In this document: positions 1 through 62,529 of the stretch, piece after piece
How positions within the stretch are numbered: the first letter of the stretch is position 1
How the letters are laid out: each line of letters begins with the position of its first letter
Assembly (NCBI GenBank): GCA_905182555.1
Contig: CAJJBX010000003.1
Location: forward strand, 1-64,000
DNA length: 64,000 nucleotides
Source of the DNA: an uncultured Ilumatobacter sp.
GTDB lineage: Bacteria; Actinomycetota; Acidimicrobiia; Acidimicrobiales; Ilumatobacteraceae
Reading direction: 5' to 3'
The notes under the pieces: generated by a model
What the model was told of the DNA's origin: nothing
Database searches by the model: none
The model's input: the letters and a program-made list of their open reading frames with translations, nothing else
Made by a program: the position numbers and the translations under genes

Positions 1-1304
<1,304 letters not shown>

Positions 1305-54380: not shown

Positions 54381-55634
54381 TCAGAAGGCGCTGCCACCTT
54401 TGTAGCGACCTTCGGGAATCAGAAGGCCGCGCACGAGGGCGGCCATCGGGTCGTCGGCCTGGGTGAGTCGATCGGCAACTGCCTGCAACGTGTCGCCGAG
54501 TGCGGTCCCACCGAAGATCCAGTCGTTCAGCGCGTCGTGATTCGGCGTCGCCGAGCCAGGCTGGGCCGCAATGGCCTCGTGGTAAAAGGTCCGTAAATCA
54601 TCGGCGAGGTGGCGAACGAGGAGCGGCATGTCGAAGGCCCATTCGATGTCGTCGGCCCCGGCCAAATCGGGCAGGTCCGTGATCGACTCAGCATCGACGA
54701 TCGAGGCCAGCGCTCGAGCAACGTCGTCGATCTGGTCAGGCCCGGCACCGCTAACACCGAACAACGTCCGGCGGCGCGCCGCACGCGTCTGTGACGACCA
54801 GGTCTTCAATCGACCAACTTCGGCCAGAAGCCGACCGGTCAGTGTGTCGTCGATGACGGGTCCCAAGTTCAACGGGCAGGCCCACTGCCCCGGGCCAGCT
54901 TCTTCGGGGAGCGGCCCGTCGTAGTCGGCAATCGTTGGCTCAGTGGCCGTGACGAGCAACGCGAACGCGTCGCGCATCACCCGTTTCTGGAAGTCCGGAT
55001 CTTCAGCCGAACCGAGTGGCCGACCTAGGGCGAACGGTACCCAGAGCGCCCGAGTCGGGCCAACGGCTTCGCTCTGTTCCCGTACCAGGCTGATCGATGT
55101 GCATGCCACGCCGGCCCGCTCGATGAAGTTGCTGAGGGCGCCAACTGCGCCCGTGCACAACGGTCAAACAGGAACGAGCAGTGCAACGTCGACACCATCG
55201 GCGGCCAGCAGCCGGCCGACCTCGGTGCCGGTGTCTTCGAACAACTGCGGAGCAGGCATCGCGCCCATGAACGAGTAGTGCCACTTGCTGACACCACCGA
55301 TCTCGCCGACGTCTGCCATCTCACGCAACCGCTCCGCCGGAAACGAGATGTTCGGGTCTTGTTGGAACGCGCTGCGATCGAAGTTGGTGCTCACGTGGCT
55401 CAAGACCACGTCGCCCCAATCGGCATCGCTCGGCATGACCCGGTAGTCGAGTGCGCCGAGGGTGAACGGCGCGTCGGATCGCAGATGCAGGCCTGCAGTC
55501 GACACGATCGCCACCGTCGACTCAGCCAAGGGCTTGGGCGTGATCCACACCCCCGGCTCGATACGCGGCATCGCATCGGCACGCGCTTGCAGGTGCTCAG
55601 CTTCCGCTTCGTGAAGATCGCTCAGTCGCACCAT
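54381..55634 (-). CDS. Selenoprotein B-like reductase (glycine/betaine/proline reductase family) with an in-frame UGA at codon 157
   Basis: 417 residues if UGA is read as selenocysteine. Upstream of it: VAIVSTAGLHLRSDAPF, VLSHVSTNFDRSAFQQDPNI, SFPAERLREMADVGEIGGVS, HYSFMGAMP and DGVDVALLVPV; then TGA (55164-55166); then PLCTGAVGALSNFIERAGV and WVPFALGRPLG in exactly the same frame. The UGA occupies the redox position of the UxxC motif (U157, C160). A hairpin with a GU-containing loop follows at SECIS distance. Start ATG 55634 shares a base with the GST stop. Members in aerobes are poorly characterised; the pathway and electron donor are unknown. selA/B/D are not in the window. Confidence 0.78.
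55128..55161 (-). promoter_or_regulatory. SECIS-like hairpin downstream of the in-frame UGA
   Basis: Read on the minus strand, starting 2 bases after the UGA: lower stem GTTGT/GCAAC, a small internal loop, then a perfect GGGCGC/GCGCCC upper stem with the five-base loop AGTTG. The apical loop begins 17 bases after the UGA and has G at its second position and a GU pair of bases, as bacterial SelB-binding elements do. Six upper-stem pairs in coding sequence are unlikely by chance but not proof. Confidence 0.6.
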
Positions 55635-56704
55635 TAGACGAAGAGGATCTCACAACCGGTGCCCGCGAGAAGCAGATCGACGGTCGCCCGATCGGCATCG
55701 GCGAGTGCCGAATACTGCTCGCTTAGCCACACCAAACATTTTCCCTGATACCCAAACGGGCTCTGGGAGTATGTCTGGCCATCGATCGTGCACACCATCT
55801 CGTCGGCGCCCGATCGCAGCGCTGCAGCATTGGCGACCATGAACGGGGCATAGGTCCGACCGGCTTCTCTAAGCAGGCGGCGCACAGTGGGTGCCAACGC
55901 GTCGGTTGCATCCCAACCACCTTGCTCGTCGGCAACAGGCCACGACGACAAGTCGTCAACGCGCTCAATCCAGTTCACTGCTCGGGGTGCCCGGGCCGTC
56001 GCCAAGGCCGCCGACGTCGGATCCCACCACAACATCGGCTTGAGTTGGCCGTACAGCGCCATGTCAGATCGCGCCGGTCGCACGCCGAGCATGAACGGTT
56101 GGTGCGCCAGATGTTCCTGCAAAATCTCGAGGAGCCGCTCGAACGAACCTTCAAGGACGGGCTGGTTCTGATCGGTCGATCCAACGAGTGCTCGACGGCC
56201 GACCTGGCGCTCAATAATGAAGTCGTGCGCTTTGGCAAGCTGCTCGTCAGGAGCCTGCAGGTTCTGATCGAGCGGCAGCAGCAGGCCCGCTTTTTCGATG
56301 TCTGCGTTGTAGGTCCACCGGTAGTGGTACATCGCCTTGGTCACCCATTCGTCGGCGAAGTCCTCAAGCAGGAAGTCGATGAACGCAAGGGCACCGTCCG
56401 TCGGCACGAGACTGCGCTGCGCGTGATCGGCCTCGAGCCGGGCGATCTGCGGCGACGAGTCGACGAGTGTCTCAGAGTATGCGCCGTCGTCGCCCGCAAA
56501 GATCAGTACCGGGATGATCGGCACCGACCCAGGCGGAAATGTGTCGAGTGCTGAGCCCTTCAGTACCCATCGGAACGGGATGTGCCGGTAACGCAGCACT
56601 GCGCGCATCTTGAGGCTGTACGGCGAGCTATACGCCCCGCGAATAACGATCGGCTGCTCCGACGAGGTCGTCGTGCCTGCCAGCAACGGATGCTGCGGAC
56701 TCAC
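55634..56704 (-). CDS. Glutathione S-transferase-family protein
   Basis: 356 residues, longer than a usual GST. The thioredoxin-like N-terminus begins IVIRGAYSSPYSLKMRAVLR (SSPYS in place of a CPFC-type site) with VPIIPVLIF as the cis-proline region; the helical C-domain includes FIDFLLEDFADEWVTKAMYH and a second partial unit. Start GTG 56704 overlaps the upstream stop (GTGA). It may conjugate or reduce halogenated or ester substrates together with the dehalogenase upstream. Confidence 0.78.
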   Translation of the reverse strand: MSPQHPLLAGTTTSSEQPIVIRGAYSSPYSLKMRAVLRYRHIPFRWVLKGSALDTFPPGSVPIIPVLIFAGDDGAYSETLVDSSPQIARLEADHAQRSLVPTDGALAFIDFLLEDFADEWVTKAMYHYRWTYNADIEKAGLLLPLDQNLQAPDEQLAKAHDFIIERQVGRRALVGSTDQNQPVLEGSFERLLEILQEHLAHQPFMLGVRPARSDMALYGQLKPMLWWDPTSAALATARAPRAVNWIERVDDLSSWPVADEQGGWDATDALAPTVRRLLREAGRTYAPFMVANAAALRSGADEMVCTIDGQTYSQSPFGYQGKCLVWLSEQYSALADADRATVDLLLAGTGCEILFV

Positions 56705-57540
56705 GAGTCGATCGATGCTTCGAGTTCGTTGAGACGGGCGCGAACGATCATCGTGTACGTGTCGGCAATGGCGGCTTCGCGGTGGTCCTTTTGAGCTTCG
56801 AGGCGGACCGGGTCCATGACGACGGCCATGAACGCTGCCTTGCTCGGGAACTCGTTGAAACGGACCTGATGCCATGCCCGACCGTCGCCGATGATCGTGT
56901 CTTCGACGGCGAACCAGCCACTGATCCGAACACCGTGACCGAGCGCAACCTTGGCCGCCGCGGTCTGATACTGCTCCATCTGATTGGGTGTCCTTTCGGC
57001 CGCCGCTGTTCCTTGAGCAGTGTCATGAAAGCGCAGGACATGGACCACCACGACCGGGCCGTCATCGGCGGTCGGCGGGTGGGGCACGTCAGCCCAGTCG
57101 GCCTGCTCGAACCCTTCCGGGGGCGTCGGCATCTCCATGGGTTGCGAGCCGATGACGATCGTCGACTCCATCCCAGCGTCCTTGTGGTGATGCGACTTCT
57201 GGAAACTCGGGAGCGACTGCATATCGATGAACGCCTTGCGCGTCGGGTACTTCACGACGCCGACGCGGTCCCACGTAGTTTCATCACCCAGCAGTTGCTG
57301 ATCGACGTCACCGAAGAACACCGGTGCAGCACCGACGGCGGCGAGCGAGTCGAGCGGCGAGTAAGCATCGTCGGCATCACGCCCACTGATTGCTGACTCG
57401 CGGCCATCGGCGTAGTCGGCGACCTCGCGATATTTCATGAGGTTAACCATCCACACCGGGCCGTCATCTTCGGGCGGCATCATCGCCATCGACATTGCGT
57501 ATTCCGTGTTCGGTGTTCCGTAGCGAACCGTGTTACTCAT
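56701..57540 (-). CDS. Tandem DUF1330-like dimeric alpha/beta-barrel protein
   Basis: 279 residues that look like two ferredoxin-like barrel units: the first around PVWMVNLMKYREVADYAD and VVKYPTRKAFIDMQSLPSFQ, the second around VVVVHVLRFHDTAQGTAAAE and VRFNEFPSKAAFMAVVMDP. This duplicated arrangement resembles DUF1330/NIPSNAP-type proteins. No function is assigned. It overlaps the sulfatase/DJ-1 stop by four bases. Confidence 0.7.
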   Translation of the reverse strand: MSNTVRYGTPNTEYAMSMAMMPPEDDGPVWMVNLMKYREVADYADGRESAISGRDADDAYSPLDSLAAVGAAPVFFGDVDQQLLGDETTWDRVGVVKYPTRKAFIDMQSLPSFQKSHHHKDAGMESTIVIGSQPMEMPTPPEGFEQADWADVPHPPTADDGPVVVVHVLRFHDTAQGTAAAERTPNQMEQYQTAAAKVALGHGVRISGWFAVEDTIIGDGRAWHQVRFNEFPSKAAFMAVVMDPVRLEAQKDHREAAIADTYTMIVRARLNELEASIDS

Positions 57541-60179
57541 GAGGTACTCGCCTTTTCGCCGGTGTCGGCAAGTTCGGTGGGTGCTGTAGTTGAAGGAGAT
57601 ATCTGCGCAACGAGAAGTTGCATCATTTCGCGAGCCACCATCGGCCCGGCGTTCTGGTTCTGGCCGGTGACGATGTTGCCGTCAACGACCCAGTGATTGG
57701 CAAGCGGGTCGCGCCGCCTCGTCTGGCTCTCGAAAGCAGCGCCAACACCGCGCAGTTCGCGCTCCGGATGGTGCGGTGTCGATTGGATGCCGAGTTCCTT
57801 TACCTGCTTGTCGGTGACTGCAGAGATCTTGCGGCCGTCGACGAGCGGGCTGCCATCGGCCGCCTTCGCGTTGAGGAGGCCGAGCGGCCCATGGCACACG
57901 CCGCCCATCACCAATCCGGCGGCGTTGGCCTCAGTCATCTTGTCGCCCAGCGCGGCGGAGAAGCCAAAGTCGAAGGCGGCACCCCAGCCCCCGGCGAGGA
58001 ACACGATGTCGTAGTCGTCCATCTCGAGATCAGCGATGGCGAGCGATGTGGTGACCTTTACCTTGAAGTCGTCGTCAGCGAGGAAGCGGTCGTCGTCGGC
58101 ACATCGGATGACCGGCTTGATCGACTGCGGGTCGACCGGAACCACGCCACCAAGCGGGCTCGCCACATCGACCGCCATTCCGGCATCAAGGAAGGCGTAG
58201 TAGGGGACCGTCATCTCGCTGGCGAACACGCCGGTCGGCTTGCCGATGTCCATCACTGCAGTGTTTGTCGCAACGATCAATGCCCGCTTGCCGGCGAGGT
58301 CGAAGGTGGTGGCGTCGGGATCTTCTGGGTGCATGCCAGCGCGCTGCAGGACCTTGCGGAGTAGACGGGCGGGTGGGGGTGCTTTCTTCATGGGGGCTCC
58401 AGCGGTGGGTTGGCGTGACGCATACGGCCACGGGTTGTTGCGCTCAGGCACAGCCCGGGCGCGCTCGGTTTGCAATGCGGTTCGCATATGCGCGAACACG
58501 TCGGATACTGATTCGTCGTTCCAACGATTGGCTATTTCGATCGGGTCAGCGTCAAGGTTGTACAGCTCCCACTGGTCGGGGAGCGCAACCGTTCGATACT
58601 CATTGCCACCCGGGCCCGACGCAGCAAGATGACAGATGCCAGGTTCGGTCCAGGTGTCTGGGTCGTCGAACGTGCGGACGAGCTTCCACAGGTTGCCAGC
58701 GCCATCGACATTGGTGGGAACGCGCAGTACGAGCCCCTCGAAGTTGGATGCAACATGTGCAGGTACCTGGATGCGCAACGGCGCCGGAGGCTTGGCGGAC
58801 CGGCCAAGCCGGCGGGCGAGACCAGATGCTCCCGAATCACCTTCGAGCATGTTGTCGCGGGTCATGAGGTAGACCGGCCGATCGGGGTCGGCGGTGTCAG
58901 GTGCGTCGACCACCGGCATCAAATTTCGGCCTGGTAGCGAATGGATTTCGCTGAAATCAGACTGCAGCACGTTGGCAGCGATCGACTCATCGATACCGGC
59001 CGCGGCAAGGAGGGTCGGAACGAGGTCGACATGCGAGGTCGGCGCGCCTTCGATCGAAATACCGGTCGTCGGGTTTGCACCAACGCGAGCGATCGAGAAG
59101 GGCACGCGGGTTGCCTCGTCGTACAGGGTGAACCACTTTTGGTGCAAGCCGCCGTGGGCGCCGAGAAGGTCGCCGTGGTCGGAGGTGCGCACGATGACGC
59201 TGTCGTTGCCACCCTGATCGACCGAGGCGGTGACCGCACGACGAACCTGATCGATCGGGCCGTCGACCTCGGCATGCAGCCGGTAGTACAAGTCGCGATA
59301 TTCCTGCGCCTTCTTCGAATAGGTCGCTGCGACTGCCGGAATCGGCCCGTAGCCCGACGGGTACGTCTCACGGTACGCGATCTGGGCCGCTGGCTTGCTT
59401 GCAAGATCCTCGTTGGCGGTCGGCGCTTCCGGCACATGCGGTGGGTCAAGCGGGCCAACATCGAGCGGGTTACCGCGTCGCGCCCATGCAGGGAAGAGCA
59501 CGATGTCGTGCGGGTTGACGAAGCTCGCCACCAGCAAGAACGGACGTTGTGCATCGGCGTCACCGGCGGCACGTCTGGCGTAGCGATTTTCGAGCCAGTT
59601 GACGACCCGTTCGGCGATCAGGGGGTCGCGTCGAAACCCGCTGTCGGCGAGGTCACCGCCGTGCGGTTCGGGGCCGATCCAACCGTCGAAACCAAACGCG
59701 TTGAGTGGATTCGCAACGCGGTACTGCTCGACAGCCGCTGCATCAACATTGCCCTCGCCGTCGTTGGTCTCGACCCGGCTGCCATCGTTCGCCCCGCCAA
59801 CATGGTGGAGGTCGGCGTGGCTGATGTGCCACTTGCCGTCGTAGTGCGTGTCGTAGCCCGCAGCACGGAACCAGTTGCCGAGCGTCGGCACTTCGCCCTC
59901 GGGCAACCAGCGGAGCCGAGAGTCGTTAGCCCTCTTGCCGAGCCCGTCGGTCTGCGTGACGCCGTGGACATCGGGGTACTGGCCGGTGAAGATCGTTGGA
60001 CGACTGGGCACGCAGGCCAACGATCCGGTGTAGTGCCTGTTGAAGTTCACAGCATTGTCGTCAAACCACCTCCGACCGCTGAGGGCAGAGCGCCGCCAGG
60101 CAAGGACATCGTCCGCCTCGTAGGGCGGGATGGCCCGCTCTTCGTCGGTCATGATGATGATCACGTCGGGACGCGTCAT
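57537..60179 (-). CDS. Fusion of type I sulfatase and DJ-1/PfpI domain
   Basis: 880 residues. Residues 1-590 are a formylglycine sulfatase: metal ligands in IIIMTDEER, the FGly motif C56-V-P-S-R in LACVPSRPTIFTGQYP, DGKWHISHADLHHVGG, FVNPHDIV, TSDHGDLLGAHGGLHQKWF. Residues 640-860 are a DJ-1/PfpI domain: ASEMTVPYYAFLDAGMAVDV, IVFLAGGWGAAFDFGF, and the nucleophile-elbow cysteine in GGVCHGPLGLL. A proline-rich linker (MKKAPPPARLL) joins them. Maturation would need a formylglycine-generating enzyme elsewhere. The join of these two activities is unusual. ATGA overlaps at both ends. Confidence 0.86.
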   Translation of the reverse strand: MTRPDVIIIMTDEERAIPPYEADDVLAWRRSALSGRRWFDDNAVNFNRHYTGSLACVPSRPTIFTGQYPDVHGVTQTDGLGKRANDSRLRWLPEGEVPTLGNWFRAAGYDTHYDGKWHISHADLHHVGGANDGSRVETNDGEGNVDAAAVEQYRVANPLNAFGFDGWIGPEPHGGDLADSGFRRDPLIAERVVNWLENRYARRAAGDADAQRPFLLVASFVNPHDIVLFPAWARRGNPLDVGPLDPPHVPEAPTANEDLASKPAAQIAYRETYPSGYGPIPAVAATYSKKAQEYRDLYYRLHAEVDGPIDQVRRAVTASVDQGGNDSVIVRTSDHGDLLGAHGGLHQKWFTLYDEATRVPFSIARVGANPTTGISIEGAPTSHVDLVPTLLAAAGIDESIAANVLQSDFSEIHSLPGRNLMPVVDAPDTADPDRPVYLMTRDNMLEGDSGASGLARRLGRSAKPPAPLRIQVPAHVASNFEGLVLRVPTNVDGAGNLWKLVRTFDDPDTWTEPGICHLAASGPGGNEYRTVALPDQWELYNLDADPIEIANRWNDESVSDVFAHMRTALQTERARAVPERNNPWPYASRQPTAGAPMKKAPPPARLLRKVLQRAGMHPEDPDATTFDLAGKRALIVATNTAVMDIGKPTGVFASEMTVPYYAFLDAGMAVDVASPLGGVVPVDPQSIKPVIRCADDDRFLADDDFKVKVTTSLAIADLEMDDYDIVFLAGGWGAAFDFGFSAALGDKMTEANAAGLVMGGVCHGPLGLLNAKAADGSPLVDGRKISAVTDKQVKELGIQSTPHHPERELRGVGAAFESQTRRRDPLANHWVVDGNIVTGQNQNAGPMVAREMMQLLVAQISPSTTAPTELADTGEKASTS

Positions 60180-61620: not shown

Positions 61621-62529
61621 TCAGCCCCCGCTGACGGCGTCGATGAGGATCTGGGCGATCTGCGGCGCGCCGTCTTCCTGGAAGAAGTGGTGCGCGTTCG
61701 TGACCGTGGTGTGCCGCTGGCCCTGTGCGCCAGGCACGAGCTTCCGGAACGGCTTGTCGCCGCCGGTGGTGACCGGATCGTCATCGCTGAAGCAGCAGAT
61801 GAATGGCTTCTCCCACTGCTTCAGTACTTCCCAGGCGGCGAGGTTGTCGGGCGCCGCCGGGTCGTCAGTCGATGTGGGAACGAGCGACGGGAAGATGCGC
61901 GCGCCCTCCTTGAAGGTCTCGTCGGGGAACGGTGCGTCGTAGGCAGCCACTTCGCCCTCGGTCAATTCGCTGTTGGTTGCACCCTGCAGGATCTGGCCGA
62001 TTGGGAAAACGGGCGATTCCTGGCTGAACTTCTGCCACGCCATGAACGCATCACTTGGCGCGCTTTCACCAGTCGGCAGGCCGGTGTTGCCGATCACGAC
62101 GCTGGCGAACCGATCAGGGTTTGCTGCAACGAGGCGAAGGCCGACAAGGCCGCCCCAGTCCTGACCAAAGAACGTCGCGTTCTGCAGGTCAAGATGATCA
62201 ATGATCGCTTCCTGCATCCAAGCCACGTGCCGGGCGTAGGTGTAATCGCTCTTCTCACTCGGCTTGTCGCTCTTGCCAAATCCGACGAGATCGGGCGCGA
62301 TCACGCGCATCCCCGCACCGGTCAGCAGCGGGATGATCTTGCGGTAGAGGTAACTCCATGACGGCTCGCCATGCATCGCCAGGACAACCGGCCCGTCAGC
62401 CGGGCCCTCGTCGAGATAGTGGACGCGGAGGGTGCCGCCGTCCTGGTCGTCGATCTCGACGTAGTTCGGTGCGAAGGCGTAGCCCGCGAGATCAGCGAAA
62501 CGCTCGTCGGGTGTGCGGAGTGATTTCAT
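61621..62529 (-). CDS. Haloalkane dehalogenase (HLD-I type)
   Basis: 302-residue alpha/beta hydrolase that removes halide from alkyl halides. The nucleophile is D124 in FFGQDWGGLVG with the halide-binding W125; the other motifs are AMHGEPSWSYLYRKIIPLL, the acid in CFSDDDPVTTGGD and the catalytic His in NAHHFFQEDGA. The HGEP box and Asp-Trp are the diagnostic difference from epoxide hydrolases. First gene of the minus-strand operon to 54381. Confidence 0.9.
   Translation of the reverse strand: MKSLRTPDERFADLAGYAFAPNYVEIDDQDGGTLRVHYLDEGPADGPVVLAMHGEPSWSYLYRKIIPLLTGAGMRVIAPDLVGFGKSDKPSEKSDYTYARHVAWMQEAIIDHLDLQNATFFGQDWGGLVGLRLVAANPDRFASVVIGNTGLPTGESAPSDAFMAWQKFSQESPVFPIGQILQGATNSELTEGEVAAYDAPFPDETFKEGARIFPSLVPTSTDDPAAPDNLAAWEVLKQWEKPFICCFSDDDPVTTGGDKPFRKLVPGAQGQRHTTVTNAHHFFQEDGAPQIAQILIDAVSGG

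What the first reader, a model, noticed from the sequence alone, without database searches (positions are those of the whole stretch)
54381..55634. In-frame UGA with SECIS-like hairpin: a probable selenoprotein in an aerobic-type operon
Two homologous segments of a selenoprotein B-like reductase lie in exactly the same frame on either side of a TGA at the redox position of a UxxC motif. A stem GGGCGC/GCGCCC with loop AGTTG follows 12 bases after the UGA. Known relatives (glycine, betaine, D-proline reductases) are selenoproteins from anaerobes; here the gene sits with a dehalogenase, GST and sulfatase.
Basis: partly seen in the sequence, partly recalled or inferred. Interest (0 to 1): 0.8.

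Follow-up and report, generated by a model that had tools for sequence, protein, structure and literature searches.

The report
Selenium-containing PrdB-like enzyme without partner
A gene interrupted by a stop codon is almost certainly read through with the rare amino acid selenocysteine, giving a redox enzyme related to a known family from oxygen-avoiding bacteria but apparently lacking that family's partner protein; similar proteins are common in the sea, and what this one does is unknown.

Summary
Window 54381-55634 (-) is one 417-codon frame with TGA at codon 157 (V-U-P-L-C) and a terminal TGA. At the aligned codon 90 of 97 loci (one is the window gene itself) have TGA and 7 have TGC. The stem after the UGA keeps all six pairs in 64 of 81 distinct Sec sequences, against 4.6% after synonymous reshuffling, and in 0 of 7 Cys relatives. 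The host genome has tRNA-Sec, selA, selB, selD and a haem-copper oxidase. So this is a real selenoprotein, probably of an aerobic acidimicrobial actinobacterium. Sec-containing PrdB-type proteins are already reported as abundant in seawater, so the kind is not new. Less expected: (i) of 64 surveyed genomes with PrdB-type copies, 63 lack any PrdA/GrdE gene, so D-proline or glycine reductase activity is unlikely; (ii) this clade carries a C-terminal helical domain without a Pfam match or clear solved-structure match. Likeliest role: a stand-alone selenol/thiol (UxxC) reductase in catabolism or detoxification, substrate unknown. Linkage to a haloalkane dehalogenase and a GST-like gene is suggestive only. 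New variant of a known kind.

The parts
54381..55634 (-). Selenoprotein gene, 417 codons plus stop, PrdB/GrdB superfamily
55164..55166 (-). UGA codon 157, read as selenocysteine (inferred)
   Evidence: TGA in 90 of 97 loci that cover the codon, TGC in 7
55155..55157 (-). Cys160 codon, second residue of the UxxC motif
   Evidence: invariant in the 14-row alignment; replaced by a second TGA in L061 and L062
55136..55152 (-). SECIS hairpin in the mRNA: six-pair stem, loop AGUUG, 17 bases between UGA and loop
   Evidence: fits the bSECIS model quoted
54384..54902 (-). C-terminal helical domain of the long form
   Evidence: alignment A3, model pLDDT 86.2, no Pfam match for this sequence, no clear PDB match
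55634..56875 (-). GST-like gene; its TAA shares a base with the ATG of the selenoprotein gene; true start may lie further in (neighbour)
   Evidence: relatives near the selenoprotein gene in L021 and L074
56701..57540 (-). DUF1330-like gene (neighbour)
   Evidence: PF07045 20.4 bits, under its cut-off of 23
57537..60179 (-). Sulfatase plus DJ-1/PfpI domain (neighbour)
61621..62529 (-). Haloalkane dehalogenase (neighbour)
   Evidence: NF002043 456.9 bits, cut-off 265; an 84% identical copy ends directly before the selenoprotein gene in L023
53287..54312 (-). Acrylyl-CoA reductase family gene (neighbour)
   Evidence: TIGR02823 431.4 bits, cut-off 297.25

Best explanation
The gene encodes a genuine selenoprotein of the PrdB/GrdB superfamily. 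Shown by computation: UGA157 is in frame, sits at a Sec/Cys position of a UxxC motif and is followed by a hairpin that evolution keeps; the genome encodes the Sec machinery. Inferred: SelB delivers Sec-tRNA to UGA157, and the UxxC pair is a selenol/thiol redox centre on a Rossmann-like domain. Also inferred: because the PrdA/GrdE pyruvoyl subunit is missing from nearly all surveyed genomes with PrdB-type copies, it is not a D-proline or glycine reductase but a stand-alone reductase whose C-terminal helical domain helps bind substrate or partner. It most likely works in catabolism or detoxification, Sec157 attacking an electrophilic or oxidised small substrate and Cys160 resolving the selenosulfide, recharged by a cellular thiol system. 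My odds: selenoprotein 0.97; not a D-proline or glycine reductase 0.85; the reductase role as described 0.5.
For: Codon: TGA in 90 of 97, TGC in 7 of 97. SECIS: 64 of 81 distinct sequences with all six pairs, codon-shuffled mean 4.6%, 0 of 7 Cys relatives. Machinery in the own genome. selA found in 60 of 64 genomes with PrdB-type matches against 176 of 332 others; the four without are listed as 75-82% complete. Purifying selection on both sides of the UGA. No PF09338 in the own genome and in 63 of 64 PrdB-type genomes; PrdA over cut-off in 0 of 396. Haem-copper oxidase.
Against: No expression, protein or selenium data. The own genome is 72.7% complete, so its lack of PrdA/GrdE alone proves little; the argument rests on near-complete relatives, two of them single-contig. 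The hairpin of this gene alone is not exceptional. No conserved operon partner was found, so the role is inferred from motif and setting. Another pyruvoyl or binding subunit of an undescribed family cannot be excluded.
Confidence: 0.8

Rival explanations
1. It is a D-proline or glycine-type reductase subunit whose PrdA/GrdE partner was missed.
For: Best NCBIfam profile is PrdB; the assembly is 72.7% complete; the literature files such sequences under proline reductase PrdB.
Against: PF09338 absent in 63 of 64 genomes with PrdB-type copies; in the 64th, G289, it lies beside a GrdB-type match, not beside its two PrdB-type copies. PrdA over cut-off in 0 of 396. Score only a third of the PrdB cut-off.
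Confidence: 0.1
2. The protein removes halogen or cleaves thioether/thiol adducts by selenol attack, working with the haloalkane dehalogenase and the GST-like protein (a special case of the best explanation).
For: Haloalkane dehalogenase in the same gene run here and directly before the gene in L023; GST-like gene near it in the window, L021 and L074. GrdB-like genes are implicated in fluoroacetate defluorination in Synergistota (abstract).
Against: Of 34 neighbourhoods compared (window plus 33 loci), the dehalogenase is near the gene in 2 and the GST-like gene in 3; other relatives checked sit beside various other genes. The fluoroacetate case is anaerobic and has two GrdB-related genes.
Confidence: 0.12
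3. The TGA is a real stop or a sequencing error in a pseudogene or split gene, and the downstream similarity is a relic.
For: The contig comes from a draft assembly; a ureC-like gene elsewhere in the window looks frame-shifted.
Against: Same TGA in 89 loci other than the window's own; conserved hairpin; dN/dS about 0.07 after the TGA.
Confidence: 0.02
4. UGA is reassigned to a sense codon in this organism.
For: None found.
Against: 15 of the 17 window genes that I listed, this one included, end in TGA; tRNA-Sec and SelB are present.
Confidence: 0.01

Closest known systems
D-proline reductase subunit PrdB (TIGR04483)
   Same: Sequence match over residues 24-231 across the Sec codon; UxxC with Sec (motif)
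   Different: 100.3 of 300 bits; extra C-terminal domain; no PrdA over cut-off in 396 genomes
Glycine/sarcosine/betaine reductase selenoprotein B, GrdB (PF07355, TIGR01918)
   Same: Homology around the UxxC motif (PF07355 26.4 bits, cut-off 22)
   Different: GrdB is given as UxxCxxC (passage), here residue 163 is Ala; TIGR01918 under cut-off; no PF09338 partner gene; the five GrdB rows form a separate branch of the tree
'Proline reductase PrdB' selenoproteins of the Sargasso Sea and GOS sets
   Same: Probably the same broad group: marine, UxxC, PF07355-related
   Different: Those sequences were not compared here; the passages seen do not mention a missing PrdA or a C-terminal domain

Membership tests
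Bacterial selenoprotein gene | In-frame UGA at a position that is Sec or Cys in homologues | tested here: met
   90 TGA and 7 TGC of 97 loci
Bacterial selenoprotein gene | bSECIS model: loop 3-9, stem 4-16 bp, G in the first two loop positions, 16-37 nt spacing, MFE -7.5 kcal/mol or lower (figure legend) | tested here: met
   Loop 5, stem 6, G second in the loop, 17 nt, -18.2 kcal/mol for the 45 bases (L036)
Bacterial selenoprotein gene | selA, selB, selC, selD in the genome | tested here: met
Bacterial selenoprotein gene | Selenium in the protein | not testable with these tools
   needs 75Se labelling or mass spectrometry
GRDB superfamily (Pfam PF07355) | Score over the gathering cut-off | tested here: met
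   26.4 bits, cut-off 22
D-proline reductase PrdB (TIGR04483 equivalog) | Score over the curated cut-off | tested here: not met
   100.3 bits, cut-off 300
D-proline reductase PrdB (TIGR04483 equivalog) | PrdA partner in the genome | tested here: not met
   No TIGR04480 or PF09338 match in the own genome; that assembly is 72.7% complete, near-complete relatives agree
Glycine-type reductase selenoprotein B | NCBIfam TIGR01918/TIGR01917/NF040794/NF040795 over cut-off | tested here: not met
   43, 39.8, 49.9 and 47.9 bits against 65.45, 602.2, 800 and 775
Glycine-type reductase selenoprotein B | UxxCxxC motif | tested here: not met
   UPLCTGA
D-proline or glycine reductase | Catalytic activity | not testable with these tools
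   needs an enzyme assay

The most novel reading that the evidence does not exclude
A widespread group of selenoproteins filed under 'proline reductase PrdB' is in fact a partner-free enzyme family of aerobic bacteria, in this clade with a new C-terminal domain and a new reaction, possibly selenol-driven cleavage of carbon-heteroatom bonds. That would change the reading of one of the commonest selenoproteins in the sea.
Probability: 0.3. Interest if true: 0.7.

Novelty: new variant of a known kind. Interest (0 to 1): 0.42.

Why it matters
PrdB-type proteins are among the more abundant selenoproteins in ocean metagenomes and carry the name of an anaerobic fermentation enzyme. The lack of a PrdA/GrdE gene in 63 of 64 surveyed genomes and the extra domain argue that the name misleads, and give a concrete protein, with close homologues in Actinomycetota, Pseudomonadota and Chloroflexota, on which to test what aerobes use it for. 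Gene callers that treat UGA only as stop would cut such genes in two (general knowledge, not tested).

Tried and rejected
The sequence profile found no credible solved relative (only alpha-actinin-2 at E 0.95). Fold comparison of the whole model gave generic alpha/beta matches only (best Foldseek E 7.9e-4 to a photocobilin protein, TM 0.26 and 0.31; best VIA-align Z 8.1, rmsd 3.7, 133 residues): Rossmann-like, nothing about function. No GrdB or PrdB structure was among the rows shown; that excludes nothing. The C-terminal domain alone gave no clear match (best Foldseek E 1.3; best Z 4.7). I looked for a conserved operon partner in the window and 33 loci and found none common to many; flanks are at most 6-10 kb and some contigs end early, so partners can be missed. 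I rejected the hairpin alone as proof: 420 of 1999 TGA triplets in the window have a comparable one. Rfam gave no SECIS match in the window at gathering thresholds. Paper searches gave the Sargasso/GOS papers and reviews, and no functional study of a PrdB-like protein from aerobes among the listings seen; only this open-licence library was searched and the lists are cut. PMC1088965, PMC2398784, PMC13188914, PMC9312934, PMC9402790 and PMC5029168 were seen as passages, PMC10838667 as abstract and outline.

Rows dropped: of the matches, three were not fetched (weak ones in G124 and G253, a partial one in G111 C3). In one search, 8 of 105 loci did not cover the codon (L035, L103, L137, L140, L141, L142, L144, L145). 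In one search five GrdB-type rows were left out and 85 Sec rows collapsed to 81 distinct ones. In one search, 12 genomes were set aside as GrdB-type (motif seen in five, the rest judged by weak score and match range). Tree: 96 rows.

Full report
What is there. Window 55634-54381, minus strand, is one open frame of 417 codons interrupted by a single TGA at codon 157 and ended by another TGA. The motif is LLVPV-U-PLCTGAVGAL. One profile, TIGR04483 (PrdB), matches residues 24-231 across the TGA with E 1.1e-28, but with 100.3 bits against a cut-off of 300; GrdB-type profiles score less and are also under their cut-offs. TIGR04483 matches each of the 14 members of alignment A2 (window and 13 relatives) at E 0.01 or better. 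PF07355 is over its cut-off.

Is the UGA selenocysteine? Three lines agree. First, the codon. From named genomes (15 loci) and a survey of 396 genomes of the same phylum I examined 105 loci; 97 cover the aligned codon, 90 of them TGA (one is the window gene itself, L036) and 7 TGC. tblastn scores stops badly, so the sampling should not favour TGA. In the tree of 96 rows the Cys forms lie in several separate places among Sec forms as drawn; one of them, L112, is a long branch of unsure place. Second, the RNA. Sliding one arm by 1-3 bases gives 1.3-3.0 pairs on average instead of 5.7. Pairs switch on both sides (CG in 44 and GC in 24 sequences at pair 12-28), and GU stays at the same place of the loop in all 81, while the peptide varies: TGAVGAL, HRSVGLV, TRTVSVL, NRAVSLI. 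The sequences are related, so these are not independent trials. For this gene alone the stem is not significant (about 8% given the peptide; 420 of 1999 TGA triplets in the window pass a similar filter). Third, the machinery: tRNA-Sec with anticodon TCA, selB, selA and selD are over cut-off in the 2.56-Mb, 72.7%-complete assembly; selA and selB are neighbours on contig 11, and selD itself holds an in-frame TGA. dN/dS to L021 is about 0.09 before and 0.07 after the UGA. In the survey selA is found in 60 of 64 genomes with PrdB-type matches and in 176 of 332 others (kinship not corrected); the four exceptions are listed as 75-82% complete. Genomes with the Cys form have selA too, so this does not separate the two forms.

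What kind of protein. The AlphaFold2 model (mean pLDDT 82.1) has an alpha/beta N-terminal part with generic Rossmann-like matches only and a helical C-terminal part. That part, modelled alone (pLDDT 86.2), has no Pfam match for the window sequence (other members: hits no better than E 0.077) and no clear PDB match. One clade of the tree (25 rows, 100/98) holds the window gene, its relatives from Acidimicrobiia, Pseudomonadota and Chloroflexota, and a paralogue on contig 9 of the own genome; where the whole locus was available its rows align to residue 390 or beyond (L034 in two pieces), whereas most other rows of the survey end near residues 220-260. The six Pseudomonadota rows form one starred set (100/98) and lie among acidimicrobial rows as drawn, which suggests transfer between phyla; the fork that nests them is not starred (96/50) and the root is only a midpoint.

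Probably not a proline or glycine reductase. Those enzymes use a pyruvoyl subunit of the PrdA/GrdE kind (recalled; the title of the 1999 D-proline reductase paper in the reference lists names the pyruvoyl group). PF09338 is found in 15 of 396 genomes and in 13 of the 76 with any match to the query. Twelve of the 13 have only weak, GrdB-type matches (motif seen for five, the rest judged by score and match range). Of the 64 genomes with PrdB-type matches only G289 has PF09338, and there it lies beside a weak GrdB-type match on contig 11, not beside the two PrdB-type copies on contig 12. PrdA itself is over cut-off in 0 of 396; its weak matches, in 13 genomes, fall in genomes that have PF09338. 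G331 serves as positive control: its GrdB match and its PF09338 gene lie less than 1 kb apart.

Setting and role. The genome has a haem-copper oxidase, so aerobic respiration is likely. Upstream lie a GST-like gene whose TAA shares a base with the ATG, a DUF1330-like gene (20.4 bits, under the cut-off of 23), a sulfatase/DJ-1 gene, an SRPBCC-type gene (PF10604), a gene with PF21863 and a haloalkane dehalogenase; downstream an acrylyl-CoA reductase family gene. Among 34 neighbourhoods (window plus 33 loci) several of these genes are kept together only in L021; the GST-like gene recurs in L021 and, divergent, in L074; the dehalogenase in L023, directly in front of the selenoprotein gene; the PF21863 gene in L066 and L068. 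Other relatives sit beside enoyl-CoA hydratase, SDR, aldo/keto reductase, luciferase-like or 2OG-oxygenase genes. This fits a catabolic or detoxification reductase but names no substrate. GrdB-like genes are implicated in fluoroacetate defluorination in Synergistota (abstract), so the superfamily's chemistry may be wider than amino acids.

Known or new. Sec-containing PrdB with a UxxC motif was reported with 42 genes from the Sargasso Sea and 235 from GOS, where 110 Cys homologues were also counted (passages); a later marine survey gives proline reductase as 6.4% of selenoprotein genes (passage), and a survey of sequenced bacteria counts 131 in 110 organisms (passage). The missing partner and the C-terminal domain are not stated in the passages and listings that I saw; I did not read these papers whole, nor their supplements.

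Noticed in passing
L061 (G114 C19:14690-15316) and L062 (G081 C4:547435-548031): PrdB-like genes with UPIU: two in-frame TGAs two codons apart. The usual stem after the first UGA is lost (1-2 of 6 pairs for the two lowest rows), but a hairpin GCGCU-CGUGC-AGCGC puts its loop 18 bases after the second UGA, the register used elsewhere. Found in 2 of 16 genomes of that order. UxxU is reported in other selenoprotein families.
   Followed up: partly
G000 C9:149876-150985, C6:77047-77652, C6:95788-96507: The own genome holds three more homologues, each with TGA at the Sec position (L086, L105, L128); only the C9 copy is of the long form.
   Followed up: partly
L018 (G000 C1:68369-69286): The genome's selD has an in-frame TGA (GAG-U-GCK), so the selenophosphate synthetase appears to be a selenoprotein too.
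   Followed up: partly
window 59970-60014 (+): The Rfam hit Ms_AS-5 (RF02465) lies exactly antisense to codons 56-70 of the sulfatase gene (CVPSRPTIFTGQYPD), so the match may reflect a conserved protein motif rather than an RNA gene.
   Followed up: partly
window 857-1146 (+): The Rfam hit 5_ureB_sRNA (RF02514) lies opposite a ureC-like stretch on the minus strand (recognised from memory) that looks frame-shifted; assembly error or decay not told apart.
   Followed up: no
window 33012 (+): Longest frame in the window interrupted by a single TGA (926 and 447 codons on either side); may be two adjacent genes.
   Followed up: no
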